Virus record (IMG/VR): IMGVR_UViG_3300005921_000001
Span: 1 to 64,000 of that record
DNA length: 64,000 nt
DNA from: a virus
Direction: 5' to 3' (one strand)
The position numbers and the translations under genes are program-made. Under the pieces are notes generated by a model that ran no database searches, had not been told where the DNA came from, and saw nothing but the letters and a program-made list of their open reading frames with translations. This document shows positions 29,946 to 59,992 of the stretch, piece after piece (position 1 is the first letter of the stretch; each line of letters opens with the position of its first letter).

Positions 29946-31172
29946 TTAGCCCTTCACGTTCACAACTTGACGCAGTCGGTGTACGATTTCCACAAGATCG
30001 GTCTGCGCGGCCATCACGTCACCGATTGGTTTGTAGGCGGCAGGACTTTCGTCGATCACGTCGGCATCAAGTCGCGCCTCGATGCCCTTCATGGCTTCCG
30101 CATGTTGCTCAAGGGTGATGGCTTTCTTTGCTGCGCCGCGCGACATTGACCGACCGGCCCCGTGCGAACAGGACTGAAACGATTCCTTGTTGCCTTTGCC
30201 GCGAATGACGAAACTGCCGGTCCCCATTGAGCCGGGGATAATGCCTAAATCGCCTTCGCGCGCTCGAACCGCACCCTTGCGTGTCACGATCACGTTTTGG
30301 CTGAAATGGTTCTCTAGCGCGACGTAGTTGTGATGGCAATTCACGGCTTCGGTCGTGATGGTAACGTCGCGGCCAAGTGCTTTTGTAGTGGCTTCTCGAA
30401 CCGCTTCCATCATCAGACATCGATTGGCAAGTGCATACTCCTGCGCCCAATCGACGGCTTCGACGTAATCCTTGAAGTCCTCCGTTCCGGCTGGAAGGTA
30501 GGAAAGCTCGGCGTCCGGCAGTGTGACGAAATACCGGCGCATGTGCTCTTTCGCACGCTCTATGAAATACCGCCCAATTTGATTGCCAACACCACGCGAC
30601 CCCGAATGCAGCATGAACCAAACCACTTCGCTTTCATCAATACAAATTTCAATGAAATGATTTCCAGTACCAAGTGTCCCAAGGTGGCGCTGGTAGCGCG
30701 CGCCCCATCGCGCTAACATGGGGTGTTTTGCTCCTATGGAGGCAAAGCCTTCGTTCATTCGTTCGTTGTTCTTCACAAACGCTTCGATGCGTGGTGAAAG
30801 ATCGTGCCATGATCCACGATCATTCTCACCACCATTGTCGGTTCGGCCATGCGGGACAGCAGCTTCGATAGCAAGCCGAACACCATGCAAATTGTCTGGT
30901 AAATCGCTGGCGACCAAATTGGTCCGTGCCGCGACCATACCGCAGCCGATATCGACGCCGACCGCTGCCGGAACGATTGCACCCTTGGTCGCGATCACGC
31001 TTCCTACGGTGGCACCCATTCCCCAATGACAGTCAGGCATTACCGCGACGTGTTTGAAAATGAATGGAAGACGCGATACGTTTTCGAGCTGCGCCATCGC
31101 CTGAGGCTCGACTTGAACACCGTCCGTCCACATTTTGATCGGAGCGGCGCCTTCTGAAATATGTACGTTCAT
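29946..31172 (-). CDS. rtcB: RtcB RNA ligase
   Basis: The ATG at 31172 with AAAGGAAC upstream gives 408 residues; the longer frame has no ribosome site. It has the RtcB motifs: HWGMGATVGS, the metal site GVDIGCGM (Asp 73, Cys 77), GTGNHFIE, HSGSRGVGNQ, HHNYVALENH and the guanylylation motif SHGAGRSMSR. RtcB joins 2',3'-cyclic or 3'-phosphate ends to 5'-OH ends using GTP and Mn2+. In a phage it could repair tRNAs cut by host anticodon nucleases. It is the last gene of the leftward block. Confidence 0.95.
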   Translation of the reverse strand: MNVHISEGAAPIKMWTDGVQVEPQAMAQLENVSRLPFIFKHVAVMPDCHWGMGATVGSVIATKGAIVPAAVGVDIGCGMVAARTNLVASDLPDNLHGVRLAIEAAVPHGRTDNGGENDRGSWHDLSPRIEAFVKNNERMNEGFASIGAKHPMLARWGARYQRHLGTLGTGNHFIEICIDESEVVWFMLHSGSRGVGNQIGRYFIERAKEHMRRYFVTLPDAELSYLPAGTEDFKDYVEAVDWAQEYALANRCLMMEAVREATTKALGRDVTITTEAVNCHHNYVALENHFSQNVIVTRKGAVRAREGDLGIIPGSMGTGSFVIRGKGNKESFQSCSHGAGRSMSRGAAKKAITLEQHAEAMKGIEARLDADVIDESPAAYKPIGDVMAAQTDLVEIVHRLRQVVNVKG

Positions 31173-31185
31173 GGTAGCTGTTCCT

Positions 31186-31389
31186 TTATAGCACAACGTA
31201 CAAGCCAATAGCCATCGCCATTAGCAGGCCGAACGCTATTGCGTCAACGCCGATGGTCCACGAAGTAGTGGACCATCGGCGTTGAGCCATTGCATGAGAT
31301 TGCACCCTTGGGGCGGTGCCGTCTGCCACCCTAAGACGAAGCTCTTCCAGCTTCGTCTTAGGGCGATTGTCGTTTAGGTCGTTTCGCAT
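31186..31389 (-). CDS. Small single-pass membrane protein containing two perfect hairpins
   Basis: The ATG at 31389 (AAAGGCGA upstream) gives 67 residues: a basic, polar first two thirds and a C-terminal helix (AIAFGLLMAMAIGLYVVL). It overlaps the upstream gene and ends 13 bases before rtcB. Two long perfect inverted repeats lie inside it, so the codons may be secondary to an RNA structure. Coding status is therefore uncertain. Confidence 0.45.
   Translation of the reverse strand: MRNDLNDNRPKTKLEELRLRVADGTAPRVQSHAMAQRRWSTTSWTIGVDAIAFGLLMAMAIGLYVVL
31244..31285. repeat. Perfect 18-bp inverted repeat, 6-base loop
   Basis: Arms 31244-31261 (tcaacgccgatggtccac) and 31268-31285, loop gaagta. No T-run on either side. 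It lies 72 bases upstream of the rtcB start. Confidence 0.9.
31329..31363. repeat. Perfect 15-bp inverted repeat, 5-base loop
   Basis: Arms 31329-31343 (ccctaagacgaagct) and 31349-31363, loop cttcc. Its stem sequence is unrelated to the neighbouring 18-bp repeat. Confidence 0.9.
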
Positions 31390-31630
31390 CAAGATCGCCT
31401 TTCGTGGTTGCGCCTTCCGGCGGAGGTGAGTTAAGTAAGCGGTGCAAGTCTTTCATGGCTGCTCCCATGTTCTCATAATGGTCTTTGACAGCATATGCAA
31501 CATAGTTATGCATCAAGCGCAAGTAGACTTTCCATTTGGCAGATGAACGATTGAAACAAATCTCTGCTACTTTGACCGCGCCAATGTAGATATGATATTC
31601 GCGTGGCTTTTCAGTACGAAGCGTTGACAT
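31358..31630 (-). CDS. Hypothetical protein
   Basis: The ATG at 31630 overlaps the upstream stop (TAATG), giving 90 residues. The N-terminal half looks like a small alpha/beta fold (REYHIYIGAVKVAEICFN, WKVYLRLMHNYVAYAVKDHYE); the C-terminus is basic and Pro-rich. Unknown function. Confidence 0.55.
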   Translation of the reverse strand: MSTLRTEKPREYHIYIGAVKVAEICFNRSSAKWKVYLRLMHNYVAYAVKDHYENMGAAMKDLHRLLNSPPPEGATTKGDLDAKRPKRQSP

Positions 31631-36114: not shown

Positions 36115-36536
36115 TCCAACCACCTTCCTGCTTGAATCCCTTCCGTCTTCAATGCCGCATTACCTAATAGCTCGTTCCTTGGTATACCATCCGCTAACCG
36201 TTTGAAAAGCCAAGGGGGTAGGAAGAGGAATGTTTCGCGTTCGATGCGCAACAAAGTAGTAGCCCGACCCCCGGCGCTTTCCCACGATTCCTGCCATAAG
36301 GCTTGAGTTCGCACCCTTTCTGCGCACTCAAGCCGAACGGGTGTATCCGGCCGCTTGGGCCACGCGTCCAAACGCTTCAACTCCACCAGCCCCTGACATG
36401 TTTTGCCACGGTGCCAAAGCGCGTACAAAACATCCGGCGTTCCCGGATCGGCGCTGTTCTCCAGACGGCATAACCGCCCGAACGGGTGTAGCGTGCGGTG
36501 GAGTGTTGCCCATAGGCCGTGTTCTTTCGTGCTCAT
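36093..36536 (-). CDS. Predicted PD-(D/E)xK nuclease-like protein (VRR-NUC style)
   Basis: The ATG at 36536 overlaps the methyltransferase stop (ATGA), giving 147 residues. Residues 25-55 contain LENSADPGTPDVLYALW and GLVELKRLD, the spaced GTPD...ELK of this nuclease superfamily. The C-terminal half is helical. Adjacent to the C5 methyltransferase it could be a resolvase or part of a modification-restriction pair. Recognised by motif only. Confidence 0.5.
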   Translation of the reverse strand: MSTKEHGLWATLHRTLHPFGRLCRLENSADPGTPDVLYALWHRGKTCQGLVELKRLDAWPKRPDTPVRLECAERVRTQALWQESWESAGGRATTLLRIERETFLFLPPWLFKRLADGIPRNELLGNAALKTEGIQAGRWLEWLCRNK

Positions 36537-43207: not shown

Positions 43208-44092
43208 CTATCCTCCATCGTTTCCTATTGCTTGCGTGGCCTTCTTTGGATCGCCTTTGCAGAACACCAAAACATCTTGGTGTGTCTTGCCAAGTTTTCG
43301 AGCGGCATTGAATTGTCTGGTAATGCGGACGGGCAAGGAACCAACAGCGGTCACAAGGATCGCGCTGTTGTAAAAGCGAGCACCGGCGGCTTCGAACGCC
43401 TCAACTGTGTGGGCAGGAAAGTTCCGATAGAAACCATCCCCGTCGCGAATGTCGCCAACAACAAAGCAAGCAAAACGATCAAGGCGCAACATGCGTACCG
43501 CAGCCGCTATGATCTGACCATACATCTCGCGGAATTGCGGATAGGGCATGTTGCTTAAGTCCCTAGAGTCCGTAGAGTATACCTCCAAATCGGCGTATGG
43601 CGGACATGAGAAAATGAAATCCGCTTGCAAGCCCGGCACCAGCGTCTCAACATCGAGGCTATTACCGTTGATCCAGCGTGGCATGAATTCGGGGTCGCAA
43701 ATTGCTGCCCCCTGAACCTTGTTTGCTTCGATCTGCCGCGCGGATAGGTCAATGCCGGTGTAATGGAGACCCAGCTTGCTGGCTACTATGCCGCGAACGC
43801 TTCCCCCTGCAAAAGGGTCGAGGACGTTGCCACCGGGTGGGCAGAACCAGCGGCAGGCAAGTTCTACAAGGACCGGGTCGAAGATGGATGTGCCAGATGC
43901 CGTCGATTCAATAGCGTCTGGTTGATAGTAATTTTCCCTGAATTCTTCGATAGAAAGTTCACGCCCAAGATGCTTTTCTGTTTCTCGTTTTTTATCATAG
44001 AAGCTAATATCGCGCGCTGTATCAGGTGTGCCCCCCTGAAACACACCAGCACGATATTGTTTCTTGTCGGCAGAGTCGTTTGAACCGCTCAC
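43208..44092 (-). CDS. N4/N6 amino DNA methyltransferase
   Basis: A GTG start overlapping the small upstream ORF. The 294-residue product has TSIFDPVLVELACRWFCPPGG, SAM motif LDPFAGGSVRG (91-101), TGIDLSARQ (motif II), and the catalytic FSCPPYADLE (162-166 SCPPY). The SxPPY form suggests N4-cytosine, but adenine N6 is possible. Related phage enzymes, as I recall, have an N-terminal segment (PPFSVLDARxGYWQxRKRxW) that is missing here and appears at the N-terminus of the polymerase instead. Confidence 0.82.
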   Translation of the reverse strand: MSGSNDSADKKQYRAGVFQGGTPDTARDISFYDKKRETEKHLGRELSIEEFRENYYQPDAIESTASGTSIFDPVLVELACRWFCPPGGNVLDPFAGGSVRGIVASKLGLHYTGIDLSARQIEANKVQGAAICDPEFMPRWINGNSLDVETLVPGLQADFIFSCPPYADLEVYSTDSRDLSNMPYPQFREMYGQIIAAAVRMLRLDRFACFVVGDIRDGDGFYRNFPAHTVEAFEAAGARFYNSAILVTAVGSLPVRITRQFNAARKLGKTHQDVLVFCKGDPKKATQAIGNDGG

Positions 44093-44172
44093 CGACTTCT
44101 CTCTCTCTCAACCACATGCTCGCCGCGCATAAGGTCTTGGCCGAAGGTGCGTGCAAAGGAACGTTTGCTCAT
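44089..44172 (-). CDS. 27-residue coupled ORF
   Basis: ATG 44172 overlaps the PLP enzyme stop (ATGA) and its TGA overlaps the GTG of the methyltransferase. The peptide is strongly basic and polar (MSKRSFARTFGQDLMRGEHV). The double overlap suggests it is at least a translational bridge. Confidence 0.45.
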   Translation of the reverse strand: MSKRSFARTFGQDLMRGEHVVERERSR

Positions 44173-44942
44173 AGCGCGCTGGCCCTAATTCCTACGATCC
44201 ATAATAAATCCCCTGGTTGCAGGAATGGAATGCACTTAGCTTCATAAAAAGGGTCCAGGGGGGTGCTGTGTAGATGGGTTATTTTGGCAGGCACGTGGTA
44301 GTCCGTTCCCGAATTTACGATTTCGGACAATTGATTCCAGAATAATGGTGCCCATTGATCGAGTCGCTTACGCGGATCGGCACCAACCGAAACGCCAATA
44401 ACGGGAAGTCTGCGATCATCTTTTACAAGATGGTGGAGAATTCCTGCCAACGACATGCCGCTTCCCACTGGGACTACAATCCGTTTTGCCTCAACGGGGA
44501 TATTGCGTCCTTGCCCTGCGGTTTGTGCCACAGCTTCTGCGCATTCCATGCCGAAAGGTATGAGCTTGAACATAGTTGTCTGCGCATCGGCTGCCGCGCG
44601 CGCTTTGATAACTGCGTTATAGCCAGCCTTGTGTTGAATAATCTCGGCGCCGAATGCTTGCGCTTCTTTCATCTCGGGGGTCAATGCGCCTAATGGGCAG
44701 TGCAATCGTGCCGGAATGCCTAGCGAAGCCGCAATGCGCGCCACAATGTTCATCTGTGGGCTGGAGCGACTGGACGCTGTAACTAGCCCCTTGGCGCCTT
44801 GGGCAAGCGCCCAACAGGTTCGAGCCTTACCGCCGGGAGCGCCGGCGGCAAGGTAAAGATCGTCGCGCTTTAAGAAAACACCACCGCAAGCCTGAACAGG
44901 TGTCAATGCGTTTTGGTATGCAAACTCTGTTATTGGCAGCAT
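44169..44942 (-). CDS. PLP-dependent enzyme, fold type II (tryptophan synthase beta-like superfamily)
   Basis: The 257-residue protein has KRDDLYLAAGAPGGKARTCW with the likely PLP Lys 39, TASSRSSPQMNIVARIAASLG, and VPVGSGMSLAGILHHL as the phosphate-binding Gly loop. This is the ACC deaminase/D-cysteine desulfhydrase-like group, but shorter. It sits between a GNAT acetyltransferase and a DNA methyltransferase gene. A role in making or loading an amino-acid-derived DNA modification is a guess from context. Confidence 0.78.
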   Translation of the reverse strand: MLPITEFAYQNALTPVQACGGVFLKRDDLYLAAGAPGGKARTCWALAQGAKGLVTASSRSSPQMNIVARIAASLGIPARLHCPLGALTPEMKEAQAFGAEIIQHKAGYNAVIKARAAADAQTTMFKLIPFGMECAEAVAQTAGQGRNIPVEAKRIVVPVGSGMSLAGILHHLVKDDRRLPVIGVSVGADPRKRLDQWAPLFWNQLSEIVNSGTDYHVPAKITHLHSTPLDPFYEAKCIPFLQPGDLLWIVGIRASAL

Positions 44943-45391: not shown

Positions 45392-46393
45392 TTACGCGGC
45401 TTTCTTGCCAACGTAAATGTTTTCCTCGGTAAAGCCCTTCGGCAGAACCGCCGAAACGATACCGTTGGCATCGATATTGTGATCGATGCCATGCTTGTTG
45501 CGCAGAATGTTCTTGATACGGTATTCGACAATCTGCTTCGCCGTGAACGATTTGGTGTCCTCGATCTTGGACATGCTTATGATCTGATTCATCGTGTATT
45601 TGCCGCGAAGCATCAGTTCAACCAGTCTTGCAAGGCTGGAGGATTCTCGTACCGCTTTGCCTTCGCCAAGAACGATTGTAGAAACGCGCGGCTTGCGCTC
45701 GGCCTTCGTCTTGGGCTCCTTTGCCACCTTCGCCTTCCGCTCGGTGGTAGCCTTGGGCTTGCGGGGCTCCGCATTGCCGCGCTTTTTCGTCGATGCCATT
45801 TCTTCTCCTTCCGGTTCGGCGGCTGGCGGACCATCCGACAACTCAATCGAACCAAACTTTTCGTTCAACGCCCGAAGGAGCGCGGACTGCGCCGCAGCCC
45901 TATCGGTCGTTTCCTCATACCCCCATATACGTAGCAGATCGCAGATTGTCGAGGTCTGGAGGTATTCGTTGTTGCAATCGGCGGGGGTTTCCAGAAGAAA
46001 CGCGGCATATTTGTTACCACGCGCCTCCTGCGCCCGCAACGCCTGCTTGGCCGTCTTGCGGTCGGCAAATCGGCTGATGTCGTATGCCGCTATATCGAGC
46101 AGGGGGTAGGTCAGGAGAAAGATACGCTGCTCCGTTGGTTGCGATGGAGCGGCAACCGATGAAGGCAGCAGCCCGCACATCAGCGCCCATACGCGCGGGA
46201 TTGCCTTGGCCTTGGACTGAAAGACCTTGACTGGCGCTTCGTCCGCCGGCTTCAGGAGGTTGTAGACATCGACCAGTAGGCTGGTTTTCAGGTTAGCTAG
46301 GTCTTCGATGTTGGCAACGGCGTGAACGCCAAAGCCTTCGGTCTTTTCCCCAATTGTAACTTGGATGGGGTTTTCTGTGATGAGGAACGTCAT
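45392..46393 (-). CDS. Hypothetical protein with Lys/Arg-rich linker
   Basis: A 333-residue protein. The first 200 residues form an unrecognised domain (ANIEDLANLKTSLLVDVYNLL, MCGLLPSS). Then comes a linker of Lys, Arg, Pro, Ala and Glu (about 200-240), histone-H1-like in style, and a C-terminal domain (SLARLVELMLRGKYTMNQII, AKQIVEYRIKNILRNKHG), possibly a winged helix. It likely binds nucleic acid. An internal ATG before the linker could give a short form. Confidence 0.5.
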   Translation of the reverse strand: MTFLITENPIQVTIGEKTEGFGVHAVANIEDLANLKTSLLVDVYNLLKPADEAPVKVFQSKAKAIPRVWALMCGLLPSSVAAPSQPTEQRIFLLTYPLLDIAAYDISRFADRKTAKQALRAQEARGNKYAAFLLETPADCNNEYLQTSTICDLLRIWGYEETTDRAAAQSALLRALNEKFGSIELSDGPPAAEPEGEEMASTKKRGNAEPRKPKATTERKAKVAKEPKTKAERKPRVSTIVLGEGKAVRESSSLARLVELMLRGKYTMNQIISMSKIEDTKSFTAKQIVEYRIKNILRNKHGIDHNIDANGIVSAVLPKGFTEENIYVGKKAA

Positions 46394-49700: not shown

Positions 49701-49870
49701 TCGCAACTAACCTCATAAACGTCACAGCGTTCAATCTTTACGCAGTGCTTCTTCGCTTCAGCGTGTTTCGCAGCCTCCTTCTCGGCTGTTTTATAATTAT
49801 CAGATTCCCAAGAGCACCTTTGACACCTCGCGATTGCATGAATGATTGATGGCTCAGTCTTGTTCATCAT
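49697..49870 (-). CDS. Small zinc-finger-like protein
   Basis: A 57-residue frame from ATG 49870 (or 49867), overlapping the helicase stop and the DUF2493 start (both ATGA). It has CQRCSWESDNY near residue 15 and a later H-x6-HC, so a small zinc site is likely. Similar single zinc-finger peptides are known in phages. Confidence 0.6.
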   Translation of the reverse strand: MMNKTEPSIIHAIARCQRCSWESDNYKTAEKEAAKHAEAKKHCVKIERCDVYEVSCE

Positions 49871-51330
49871 AACCTATACCCATACGCCGTTTGCGGGGCT
49901 ACCATCACCAGCCGTTCGCTGGCGCGGGTCATTCCAACATAGAAAACACGGTGCTCGCTATCCGGATCGATTGCGTAGCCCCGTTCGACACGCGGCGTCA
50001 TATCGGTACAAAGCAGCACGTTGGCGGCTTCGGCGCCTTTGGAGCCGTGAATCGTATCTATGCGGATGCGCGGAGCATCGGTCAAACGCTCGTTGCGCCG
50101 TAAACATGCCAGGTAATATTCGCGCGTCTCCAGCGCAATGTTCACCAACGCATCGTGCCATATCAAGTTTGTATCGTAACCTAATTCGGCTGCTGTGTAG
50201 GTTCGATCCTCGGGCGCTTCTCCTAGCGTCCAAGGAAGGCCAGCGGCTGAAAATGCGAAGTGGGCATTTTCAGCCGTGATGCTTTTCCCGGCGCGCAAGG
50301 CTTCATGGGCTTGAATGGCTTTCACATCAGCAGCATCAACCGACGACTCCCCTTTCACCGAATAGATTACCCCCTGTTCCCGAGTGGTTTGGATCAGGGG
50401 GGTTAGCTGCTTGCGGGTTCGCGCAAGCAGCAGCCAATGGCCTTGACTCAAGTCTGCTTCTTCGGGGTTGGCTACCCAATCAACGGTCCCTTTCCGTTGA
50501 TTGGGTAGCCACGGGCGATGCCGCTGGCGTCTAACCCTGCTTGCTACTTCGCTGGCTGCATCGAACACGGCTTGAGGGATGCGGTGGGAAAGCGGGAGGT
50601 AGTCGATTTCATAGTCAAGGTTCAGGAAGTAGTCGTCGGCTGCTCCGGCCCATTTGTGAATACTCTGCAAATGATCGCCGGCCACATACAGCGCATCGAC
50701 ATTGGCAAAGGCGCGCTCGGCTACCGCCCATTGCAGCAATGTGAAATCCTGGGCTTCGTCAACGATAGCTATATCGACCGGCACGGGTCCGGCTTCGCGG
50801 AGGAACCGTTCAAGAATGTCGGTAAAGTCGATTAGTCCGGTATCGAAACGGAAGGCGCTGTAGGCTTCCGAAAAGCGCAACAGGCGGAACCAGTCTATTT
50901 CACCGCCGTGGTCCTGCCACGCGGCTTGCAAAGATTGGCGGGTGGTCCGGGTGTAATGGTCGAGTGTCAGCAACGGATCGGCGTTCATGCCGGCGGCGGG
51001 TGCGTCGGTATCGGTGCTGGTTGATGTAATTAGTTCGCCGGTTACGCCCGCAAGATCAGATAGATGCTCGTTGCCTAGAATATCGGAACGCTTCAAGACC
51101 AATTGCCGGAATGCAAGGCTATGGAGTGTGCGGAAATATGGAAGATCATCGGCGCTGAATCCGAATTGCTCTTCCGCGCGGTGGCGCGCTTCCCCTACCG
51201 CCGCCCGCGTGAACGAAACAAAGGCTATGCGGTCGGGCCGCGTGCCTGCTTCAAGGGCCGCTGCCATTATGTTCAGCGCGCGGGTTGTCTTGCCGGCGCC
51301 GGGGCCGCCGATCAGGAGGGTGCGTTTCAT
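49867..51330 (-). CDS. UvrD/Rep-family SF1 helicase 2
   Basis: The ATG at 51330 overlaps the upstream stop (ATGA) and starts MKRTLLIGGPGAGKTTRALN, putting Walker A at the very N-terminus; this gives 487 residues. Other motifs: FTRAAVGEARHRA (Ia), IAIVDEAQDFT (II), GDHLQSIHKWAGA (III), LSHRIP (IV), RIDTIHGSKGAEA (V) and YVGMTRASERLV (VI). It is distinct from helicase 1, closest in style to UvrD-like helicases of T4 Dda or phage type. Three perfect inverted repeats lie within 270 bp of its coding sequence. Confidence 0.9.
   Translation of the reverse strand: MKRTLLIGGPGAGKTTRALNIMAAALEAGTRPDRIAFVSFTRAAVGEARHRAEEQFGFSADDLPYFRTLHSLAFRQLVLKRSDILGNEHLSDLAGVTGELITSTSTDTDAPAAGMNADPLLTLDHYTRTTRQSLQAAWQDHGGEIDWFRLLRFSEAYSAFRFDTGLIDFTDILERFLREAGPVPVDIAIVDEAQDFTLLQWAVAERAFANVDALYVAGDHLQSIHKWAGAADDYFLNLDYEIDYLPLSHRIPQAVFDAASEVASRVRRQRHRPWLPNQRKGTVDWVANPEEADLSQGHWLLLARTRKQLTPLIQTTREQGVIYSVKGESSVDAADVKAIQAHEALRAGKSITAENAHFAFSAAGLPWTLGEAPEDRTYTAAELGYDTNLIWHDALVNIALETREYYLACLRRNERLTDAPRIRIDTIHGSKGAEAANVLLCTDMTPRVERGYAIDPDSEHRVFYVGMTRASERLVMVAPQTAYGYRL
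50244..50510. repeat. Three perfect inverted repeats inside helicase 2
   Basis: Arms 50244-50256/50264-50276 (13 bp, loop gaagtgg), 50406-50415/50422-50431 (10 bp, loop ggttcg), and 50470-50486/50494-50510 (17 bp, ggctacccaatcaacgg, loop tcccttt). All lie in coding sequence between motifs IV and V. Confidence 0.85.
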
Positions 51331-51812
51331 GGCATATCTGCGTCGGTTATTTTTTGCCAACGTGCAACAGCCACAAGTGCTTCTGGGGTTTGCCACAAAC
51401 GAGCTATTTGGTAGTTATTGGACGCAGCATTGTTATCTTTTTTACTACAAACAAGCGTCTCTCGACATTGTAATGGTTTGAATGGGGTTGTGTGAATTTC
51501 ACACAAACCCTTTTTCAAAAAAGTACAACGTCCTTTACACCAACCAGTAAATGCAGCCATAAATCCGCCTTCCATTTCTGGACCGGCGCACCCTTCGCAA
51601 CCAATAGAGGCAGGGCATAAAACAATAATACGTTCGTCATTATTGCATTCGGCACTTGGCTCCAACCAATCGGCCATAAGCCGTTGAGCGTACCCAGCAT
51701 CGATTGCGCATGTTGCTTCTTCTGGTGTCATCCAACCAGGGTTGTGTTCGCACGCGCCAACGCAATACTTGCATGTGCAAGATTCAATTGTACCTTTTAA
51801 CTTGGTTGTCAT
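51327..51812 (-). CDS. Cys-rich YkgJ-like metal-binding protein
   Basis: The ATG at 51812 overlaps the dCTP deaminase stop (ATGA), giving 161 residues with about 14 Cys, including CTCKYCVGAC near the start, GCEGCAGP, and GRCTFLKKGLCEIHTTPFKP followed by LQCRE. This resembles the YkgJ-like zinc/iron-chelating family. GACEHNPGWMTPEEA matches phage members. The cofactor and role are not known. Confidence 0.7.
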   Translation of the reverse strand: MTTKLKGTIESCTCKYCVGACEHNPGWMTPEEATCAIDAGYAQRLMADWLEPSAECNNDERIIVLCPASIGCEGCAGPEMEGGFMAAFTGWCKGRCTFLKKGLCEIHTTPFKPLQCRETLVCSKKDNNAASNNYQIARLWQTPEALVAVARWQKITDADMP

Positions 51813-58989: not shown

Positions 58990-59022
58990 TCTATCCTCCT
59001 GCTGTGGGTCTTGGAATTATTT

Positions 59023-59062
59023 ATGCTGACGGAACGACTGAAGAAAGCCGTTCCGTCAGCAT
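59023..59062 (-). terminator. 14-bp perfect hairpin after the SSB-like gene
   Basis: Arms 59023-59036 (atgctgacggaacg) and 59049-59062, loop 12 bases. On the minus strand it comes seven bases after the stop and is followed by AAATAATT, a weak U-tract. It could be a partial terminator or an mRNA-stabilising hairpin that adjusts expression downstream. Confidence 0.5.
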
Positions 59063-59068
59063 TCATAC

Positions 59069-59992
59069 TTAGAACGGGATTTCTTCGTCCTCGCTGGCGG
59101 CGCCGGCTACGTCGGCGCGGGCGCGGCCGGATTCGAGCATCGCGTTGAATGCCTTTGCTTCCTGGTACAGGGGGTCGGACGTGCGTATCAGGCTCTTGAT
59201 GTATGGTTCTTCGGTACCGTCCGGTTTCTTGGCGTCCAGTGTTAGCGACCAGCCGTAAAAATTACCTTTCTTGTTGGATTCGAAGTTGGTAGCAAGGCGC
59301 CAACGGTGCGCCCAAATTGGCGGCTGGATAGGGGGGAGCAGGTTTTCGGTTGTGCTGCGTGGGTTGGCATACTTGAACGATGTTTGGCGTTGCATGAACG
59401 CTTGGTACTTCTTGATCTGCGTCGATTTGAATGGAATTACCGCGCGGAACGGGTGGTTGGTGTGGGGATCGATAATCAATGCGAACAGATAGAAAGTTTC
59501 GGAAAGCTCGGTGCCGTTCAACGCCTCGCCCTTTTCGTTGCGGCTGGTAACGCCGTAACTCAAACGTCCGAAGCGCCCTTGCTCCGCCTTCAAGTCCTGG
59601 ATCAACTGATCATCGGGTTTGTGAATGGCAACGAAGCCGCCGCCAAGATTGCGGGGCGTGAACTCCACGTAGTTATGATCGCGGTGAACAGGAATGAAAA
59701 CAAGCCCCGGCTTGCCATCGTACAACTCACCTGTGCCTGTATTGAAGATCATTCCGGCCTTGGCGTTCGGCAAGCCCCCTTGTTCAGGGGGGTTGGCTAC
59801 TTGCGGGCTGTTGGCGGCCAACGGTGTAAGGAAAGGTACTTTCAGCTCGTCGGATGTGACGTTCTCCATGCCCGCACCGGCGTCGGTGCCGAAGTCTACT
59901 ACGGCAAGGTCGGTGCCGGCGGCGGTGGTTATTTCTTGCCCGGTTTTTGGATCGACTTCTTTCAATGTTGCTACTGCTTGTTCGATGCTCAT
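59069..59992 (-). CDS. SSB-like protein with acidic tail
   Basis: The 307-residue protein ends in EDEEIPF, the acidic C-terminal peptide of single-strand DNA-binding proteins. It has VPFLTPLAANSPQVA, GKPGLVFIPVHRDHNYVEFT and WRLATNFESNKKGNFYGW, a pattern of a phage family near replication genes. The OB fold is not obvious by eye. GAAGGAAAAG precedes the ATG. Its strong hairpin-flanked position fits an abundant protein. Confidence 0.6.
   Translation of the reverse strand: MSIEQAVATLKEVDPKTGQEITTAAGTDLAVVDFGTDAGAGMENVTSDELKVPFLTPLAANSPQVANPPEQGGLPNAKAGMIFNTGTGELYDGKPGLVFIPVHRDHNYVEFTPRNLGGGFVAIHKPDDQLIQDLKAEQGRFGRLSYGVTSRNEKGEALNGTELSETFYLFALIIDPHTNHPFRAVIPFKSTQIKKYQAFMQRQTSFKYANPRSTTENLLPPIQPPIWAHRWRLATNFESNKKGNFYGWSLTLDAKKPDGTEEPYIKSLIRTSDPLYQEAKAFNAMLESGRARADVAGAASEDEEIPF

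What the first reader, a model, noticed from the sequence alone, without database searches (positions are those of the whole stretch)
50244..50510. Cluster of three perfect inverted repeats within the helicase 2 coding sequence
Exact stems of 13, 10 and 17 bp with 6-7 base loops occur in 267 bp of an otherwise normal gene, so coding sequence has been bent to keep pairing. Together with those near rtcB they look like a genome feature of unrelated stem sequences rather than a mobile repeat family. Possible mechanisms: quasipalindrome correction during replication (template switching), hairpin insertion, or selected mRNA structure.
Basis: partly seen in the sequence, partly recalled or inferred. 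Interest (0 to 1): 0.6.

Follow-up and report, generated by a model that had tools for sequence, protein, structure and literature searches.

The report
Perfect hairpins inside phage genes
A bacteriophage from a metagenome carries far more perfect DNA hairpins inside its protein-coding genes than chance allows, most likely scars of the copying machinery briefly switching to the wrong template, a known kind of mutation seen here in phages.

Summary
Three perfect inverted repeats (stems 13, 10 and 18 bp, not 17; loops 7, 6 and 7) lie in a UvrD-like helicase gene of a 74.7-kb phage record, and two more (18 and 15 bp) lie beside rtcB. All nine lie in predicted ORFs.

The helicase repeats align with relatives' proteins without insertion in the arms, and the hairpins are not conserved at homologous sites. 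So they are neither mobile inserts nor a conserved RNA element. One relative, G027, shows the same excess (11 vs 0.68) at other places, plus many imperfect copies; G028 and G029 do not. Best reading: template-switch (quasipalindrome) mutations that rewrite one arm as the copy of the other, then decay. At the 18-bp site one arm encodes the family sequence and the other is odd, but the formal asymmetry test was not significant. The mutation type is known. What stands out is its density in two phages and its clustering.

The parts
49867..51336 (-). UvrD/Dda-like superfamily 1 helicase gene (489 aa from the ATG) that holds three perfect inverted repeats
   Evidence: Pfam UvrD-helicase 5.4e-20, PHROG 1967 1e-64; closest relatives 54-58% identical
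50244..50276 (.). perfect inverted repeat, stem 13, loop 7
50370..50401 (.). imperfect inverted repeat, 10 of 11 paired, loop 10
   Evidence: may be chance
50406..50431 (.). perfect inverted repeat, stem 10, loop 6, over the conserved LLLARTR motif
50469..50511 (.). perfect inverted repeat, stem 18, loop 7; gene-sense 3' arm encodes the family sequence (TVDWVA), 5' arm encodes odd residues (WLPNQR)
31186..31392 (-). 68-aa ORF upstream of rtcB (29946-31172) with two perfect inverted repeats; no family match, so its coding status is uncertain
31244..31285 (.). perfect inverted repeat, stem 18, loop 6
31329..31363 (.). perfect inverted repeat, stem 15, loop 5
36300..36334 (.). inverted repeat of 14 bp with one mismatch, loop 7, in a gene with a PHROG 'DNA helicase' match
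45466..45491 (.). perfect inverted repeat, stem 10, loop 6, in ORF 45392-46393

Best explanation
The hairpins are products of template-switch (quasipalindrome-correction) mutation during DNA replication. A short stretch that by chance already partly matched its own reverse complement let the growing strand fold back or jump to the sister strand, copy one arm, and return in register, making a perfect short-loop hairpin in one event. Those that left the protein working survived; later point mutations erode them. Shown: excess over chance, perfection, short loops, no insertion in the helicase arms, no conservation, shared excess but different sites in one relative. Inferred: the copying event, its direction, and the decay. 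Why two of five related phages show it clearly is unknown.
For: Excess over synonymous shuffles in G000 (9 vs 0.58) and G027 (11 vs 0.68), not in G028 (1 vs 0.93) or G029 (4 vs 3.37). No 15- or 18-bp stem sequence recurs in the record. The arms of the three helicase hairpins align without gaps to G027-G030; insertions in G029 and G030 lie between the hairpins, outside the arms. Homologous sites in relatives are on average little paired (30.6% vs 26.1% background, 121 comparisons), yet 16.5% of comparisons are at least half paired vs 6.0% background, as expected of imperfect precursors. At 50469-50511 the 3' arm residues VDWVA match G028 and G030 exactly, while the 5' arm has L, N, Q where G028-G030 have R/S, S, D/N. 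G027 also has stems of 13+ bp with one mismatch (4 vs 0.38) and with two (12 vs 3.12; shuffle maximum 7), as decay would give; by my hand count about 11 of those 28 mismatches are wobble-type (G-T or A-C), near a random share, not the bias RNA selection would leave. The mechanism can make perfect hairpins in one step (PMC8794818, abstract) and acts in coding DNA (PMC8604942, abstract and discussion).
Against: The arm-asymmetry test was not significant: fraction of background at least as asymmetric 0.11 for the 18-bp helicase site, 0.095 for G027:25202, and 0.39 or more in the other seven of nine. No direct ancestor-descendant pair was found; the nearest relatives are 54-58% identical in protein. 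Template switching does not by itself predict the clustering in G000 (4 gaps under 200 bp vs 0.2 expected, 0 of 20000 simulations), and G027 shows no clustering. G000 shows no clear excess of two-mismatch stems (5 vs 3.2). ORFs were picked by length, not by a gene finder.
Confidence: 0.7

Rival explanations
1. Selected mRNA (or single-strand DNA) structure: the hairpins regulate stability, translation or processing of the helicase and rtcB-side transcripts.
For: Both stretches fold far better than shuffles: z -6.8 and -9.4; clustering in a few stretches.
Against: The same hairpins would give such z-scores whatever their origin. Not conserved at homologous sites; G027 has its hairpins elsewhere; no Rfam match in the window; no RNase III gene in 5 of 5 records, though a host enzyme could act.
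Confidence: 0.12
2. Actively maintained coding palindromes, as proposed for hairworm mitochondria: some feature of this phage's replication keeps converting arms to identity, so the repeats persist as passengers.
For: Perfect stems with few near-perfect ones in G000, many sites, coding, positions differing between relatives, like the pattern described in PMC6649704 (abstract and discussion read).
Against: Stems are 10-18 bp, not up to 284 bp; G027 holds many eroded stems, so maintenance is not evident there.
Confidence: 0.1
3. Intrinsic terminators or other ordinary regulatory hairpins.
For: 50243-50277 on the + strand passes a loose terminator pattern; 59015-59070 lies just past a gene end.
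Against: The 50243 match is antisense to the gene and the scan found 3 vs 2.5 expected by chance; none of the other helicase stems nor the two perfect stems beside rtcB was listed as such; all lie inside ORFs.
Confidence: 0.04
4. Assembly or library artefact (fold-back chimeras).
For: The record is a metagenomic assembly and no reads were available.
Against: A fold-back chimera does not return in register; here the frame and conserved residues continue on both sides of each helicase hairpin, and a second record, G027, shows the same kind of excess.
Confidence: 0.04

Closest known systems
Quasipalindrome-associated template-switch mutations (PMC7202029, start of abstract in the search listing; PMC8604942, abstract and discussion; PMC8794818, abstract)
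   Same: perfect short-spacer inverted repeats, arms made alike, multi-residue changes in coding DNA
   Different: the event itself was not observed here; the density in one small genome is high
Coding palindromes of Nematomorpha mitochondrial genes (PMC6649704, abstract and discussion)
   Same: perfect inverted repeats inside coding genes, both arms coding, positions differ between species
   Different: hairworm repeats reach 284 bp; here 10-18 bp, in a phage, with eroded copies in a relative
General excess of perfect inverted repeats in genomes, viruses included (PMC13155455, passages)
   Same: more repeats than shuffled sequence
   Different: there they are concentrated between genes; here nine of nine lie in predicted ORFs

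Membership tests
Template-switch (quasipalindrome) mutation products | perfect or near-perfect inverted repeat with short spacer beyond chance | tested here: met
Template-switch (quasipalindrome) mutation products | one arm changed into the reverse complement of the other relative to an ancestor | tested here: inconclusive
   suggestive at 50469-50511; asymmetry test not significant; no close ancestor
Template-switch (quasipalindrome) mutation products | imperfect precursor at the same place | tested here: inconclusive
   more half-paired homologous sites than background, 16.5% vs 6.0%; rows not independent
Nematomorpha-type coding palindromes | long perfect repeats kept identical by conversion | tested here: not met
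   stems at most 18 bp; eroded stems in G027
Mobile palindromic inserts (REP, MITE, Rickettsia palindromic elements) | related copies at several places, or an insertion in the host gene | tested here: not met
   no second copy of the 15- and 18-bp stems, no insertion at the helicase arms
Diversity-generating retroelement cruciforms | reverse transcriptase in the genome | tested here: not met
   PF00078 found in 0 of 1 records
Intrinsic terminators | GC stem followed by T run at a gene end | tested here: not met
   one loose antisense match at 50243-50277

The most novel reading that the evidence does not exclude
Some phages of this replication-module group have a replication trait that makes, and perhaps keeps, coding palindromes at about fifteen times the shuffled expectation and about four times the rate of other phage loci surveyed, partly in clusters: a phage parallel to the hairworm mitochondrial case and an unrecognised source of multi-residue protein change in phages.
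Probability: 0.2. Interest if true: 0.6.

Novelty: new member of a known kind. Interest (0 to 1): 0.4.

Why it matters
If right, template switching writes several amino-acid changes at once into phage genes, and does so unevenly among related phages. That offers a natural comparison (G000 and G027 against G028 and G029) for finding which replication or repair gene, or which host, sets the rate. It also warns that perfect coding hairpins need not be selected RNA structures.

Tried and rejected
Mobile repeat family: no second near-copy of the 15- and 18-bp stems in the record; 1 and 0 exact matches of the two 18-mers in viral contigs, the one match being a single arm in another context.

Conserved RNA family: no Rfam match in the window. 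Hairpins as sites for a phage RNase III: no such gene in 5 of 5 records, though a host enzyme could act. DGR: no reverse transcriptase.

rtcB neighbours as relatives: 80 loci were fetched but the DNA matches longer than 150 bases lie in rtcB itself. No relative of the 68-aa ORF was found, and the primase search found none. The helicase search of bacterial genomes gave only weak matches. Better relatives came from the DNA polymerase search.

A shared loop motif (GAAG in several loops) was noticed by eye and not tested; I give it little weight. Arm asymmetry as a proof of copying: tested, not significant.

A survey used 185 loci of at least 8 kb, 3.56 Mb; loci overlapping the five main records and shorter loci were dropped, and identical hairpins were counted once. 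It found 104 coding, non-terminator stems >=10, or 2.9 per 100 kb; G027 had 12.3 and G000 10.7 (one of its nine, 50244, was set aside there by the T-count rule), ranked 7th and 8th, those above being short loci with 2-4 hairpins each. So G000 and G027 are high but not unique. Other phage stretches also exceed shuffles, for example L012, 4 vs 0.38, and L008, 3 vs 0.7.

Full report
What is there. The window is part of a 74,667-base virus record, G000, with a tail sheath gene, so a contractile-tailed phage. The helicase gene at 49867-51336 (-) belongs to the UvrD/Dda-like group. The three repeats are perfect and at the stated places, except that the longest stem is 18 bp.

Chance. With loops of 3-10 bases the whole record has 9 perfect stems of at least 10 bp; synonymous-codon shuffles gave a mean of 0.54 and codon-order shuffles 0.60 (200 each, maxima 3 and 4), and a second run of 60 synonymous shuffles gave 0.58, maximum 2. 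For stems of at least 13 bp it is 4 against 0 and 0.005. All nine stems lie inside ORFs chosen by length; two of these ORFs (31186-31392 and 63966-64235) had no match in G027-G030 and may not be genes.

Relatives. A DNA polymerase search gave four records of similar size, G027-G030, which share replication genes but almost none of the structural genes of G000. Perfect stems >=10 against shuffles: G027 11 vs 0.68; G028 1 vs 0.93; G029 4 vs 3.37; G030 5 vs 2.40. So one of four relatives shows the excess clearly. Ten of its eleven are wholly inside an ORF and one overlaps an ORF end.

Insertion or rewriting. In the helicase the arms align with the residues of G027-G030 without gaps inside the arms; some distant relatives have insertions or gaps nearby. 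At 50469-50511 the gene-sense 3' arm encodes VDWVA, as in G028 and G030 (LDWVA in G029, VEWVS in G027), while the 5' arm encodes WLPNQR where they have WSSSDR, WRPSNR, WRPSDR and QGAVRT. This looks like a 5' arm copied from the 3' arm. But over the nine hairpins tested the difference between arms was not beyond background (0.11 for this one).

Conservation. Across 121 hairpin-relative comparisons, 30.6% of the positions pair in the relative against 26.1% for random places of the same geometry; 16.5% of comparisons were at least half paired against 6.0%. These rows are not independent. This argues against a conserved structure and fits partly paired precursors.

Decay. Allowing mismatches in stems of 13 bp or more, G027 has 1 perfect, 4 with one mismatch and 12 with two, against 0, 0.38 and 3.12; G000 has 3, 1 and 5 against 0, 0.08 and 3.2, its fourth perfect stem (31244) being counted there as a 22-bp stem with two mismatches (40 shuffles). 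G027 thus holds what look like older, eroded hairpins, G000 younger ones. This is inference.

Clustering. Four of eight gaps between the nine G000 hairpins are under 200 bp, against 0.2 expected, 0 of 20000 simulations reaching it; G027 has none. I have no tested explanation; a local hotspot, a single complex event with several switches, or selection are open.

Folding. The antisense-strand transcript stretches fold much better than shuffles (z -6.8 and -9.4), which any long perfect hairpin would give, so this does not separate the explanations.

Literature. Template switching can create perfect hairpins in one event (PMC8794818, abstract) and changes proteins in yeast (PMC8604942, abstract and discussion). 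Perfect coding repeats in hairworm mitochondria were ascribed tentatively to such conversion (PMC6649704, abstract and discussion). A survey of 118,019 genomes found viral repeats densest between genes (PMC13155455, passages). Six searches listed no paper on coding palindromes made by template switching in phages, judging by titles and abstract starts and within that open-licence library only.

Noticed in passing
59015-59070: A 25-bp inverted repeat (84% paired, loop 6) just past the stop of the Pam3_Gp34-like gene; looks like a gene-end structure without a clear T run.
   Followed up: partly
29946-31172: The rtcB RNA ligase gene is 79% identical in DNA to one in another viral contig (L014) whose held stretch shares no other long DNA match, suggesting transfer.
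   Followed up: partly
43208-44942: A DNA methyltransferase-like gene and its neighbour match G027 at 66-69% and not G028-G030; the two phages with hairpin excess both have them (two cases only).
   Followed up: no
L007:4018-4173 (record G000, 64018-64173, just beyond the window): Two 10-bp perfect stems with 8-base loops 128 bp apart in an ORF of doubtful coding status.
   Followed up: partly
31244-31285, 31329-31363, 50244-50276, 59015-59070: Loops of several hairpins contain GAAG on one strand or the other; noticed by eye, not tested.
   Followed up: no
L040:8730-8768, L041:11571-11609, L044:10925-10967: Nearly the same 17-19 bp perfect hairpin occurs in three contigs found through rtcB, outside predicted ORFs where this was checked.
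   Followed up: no
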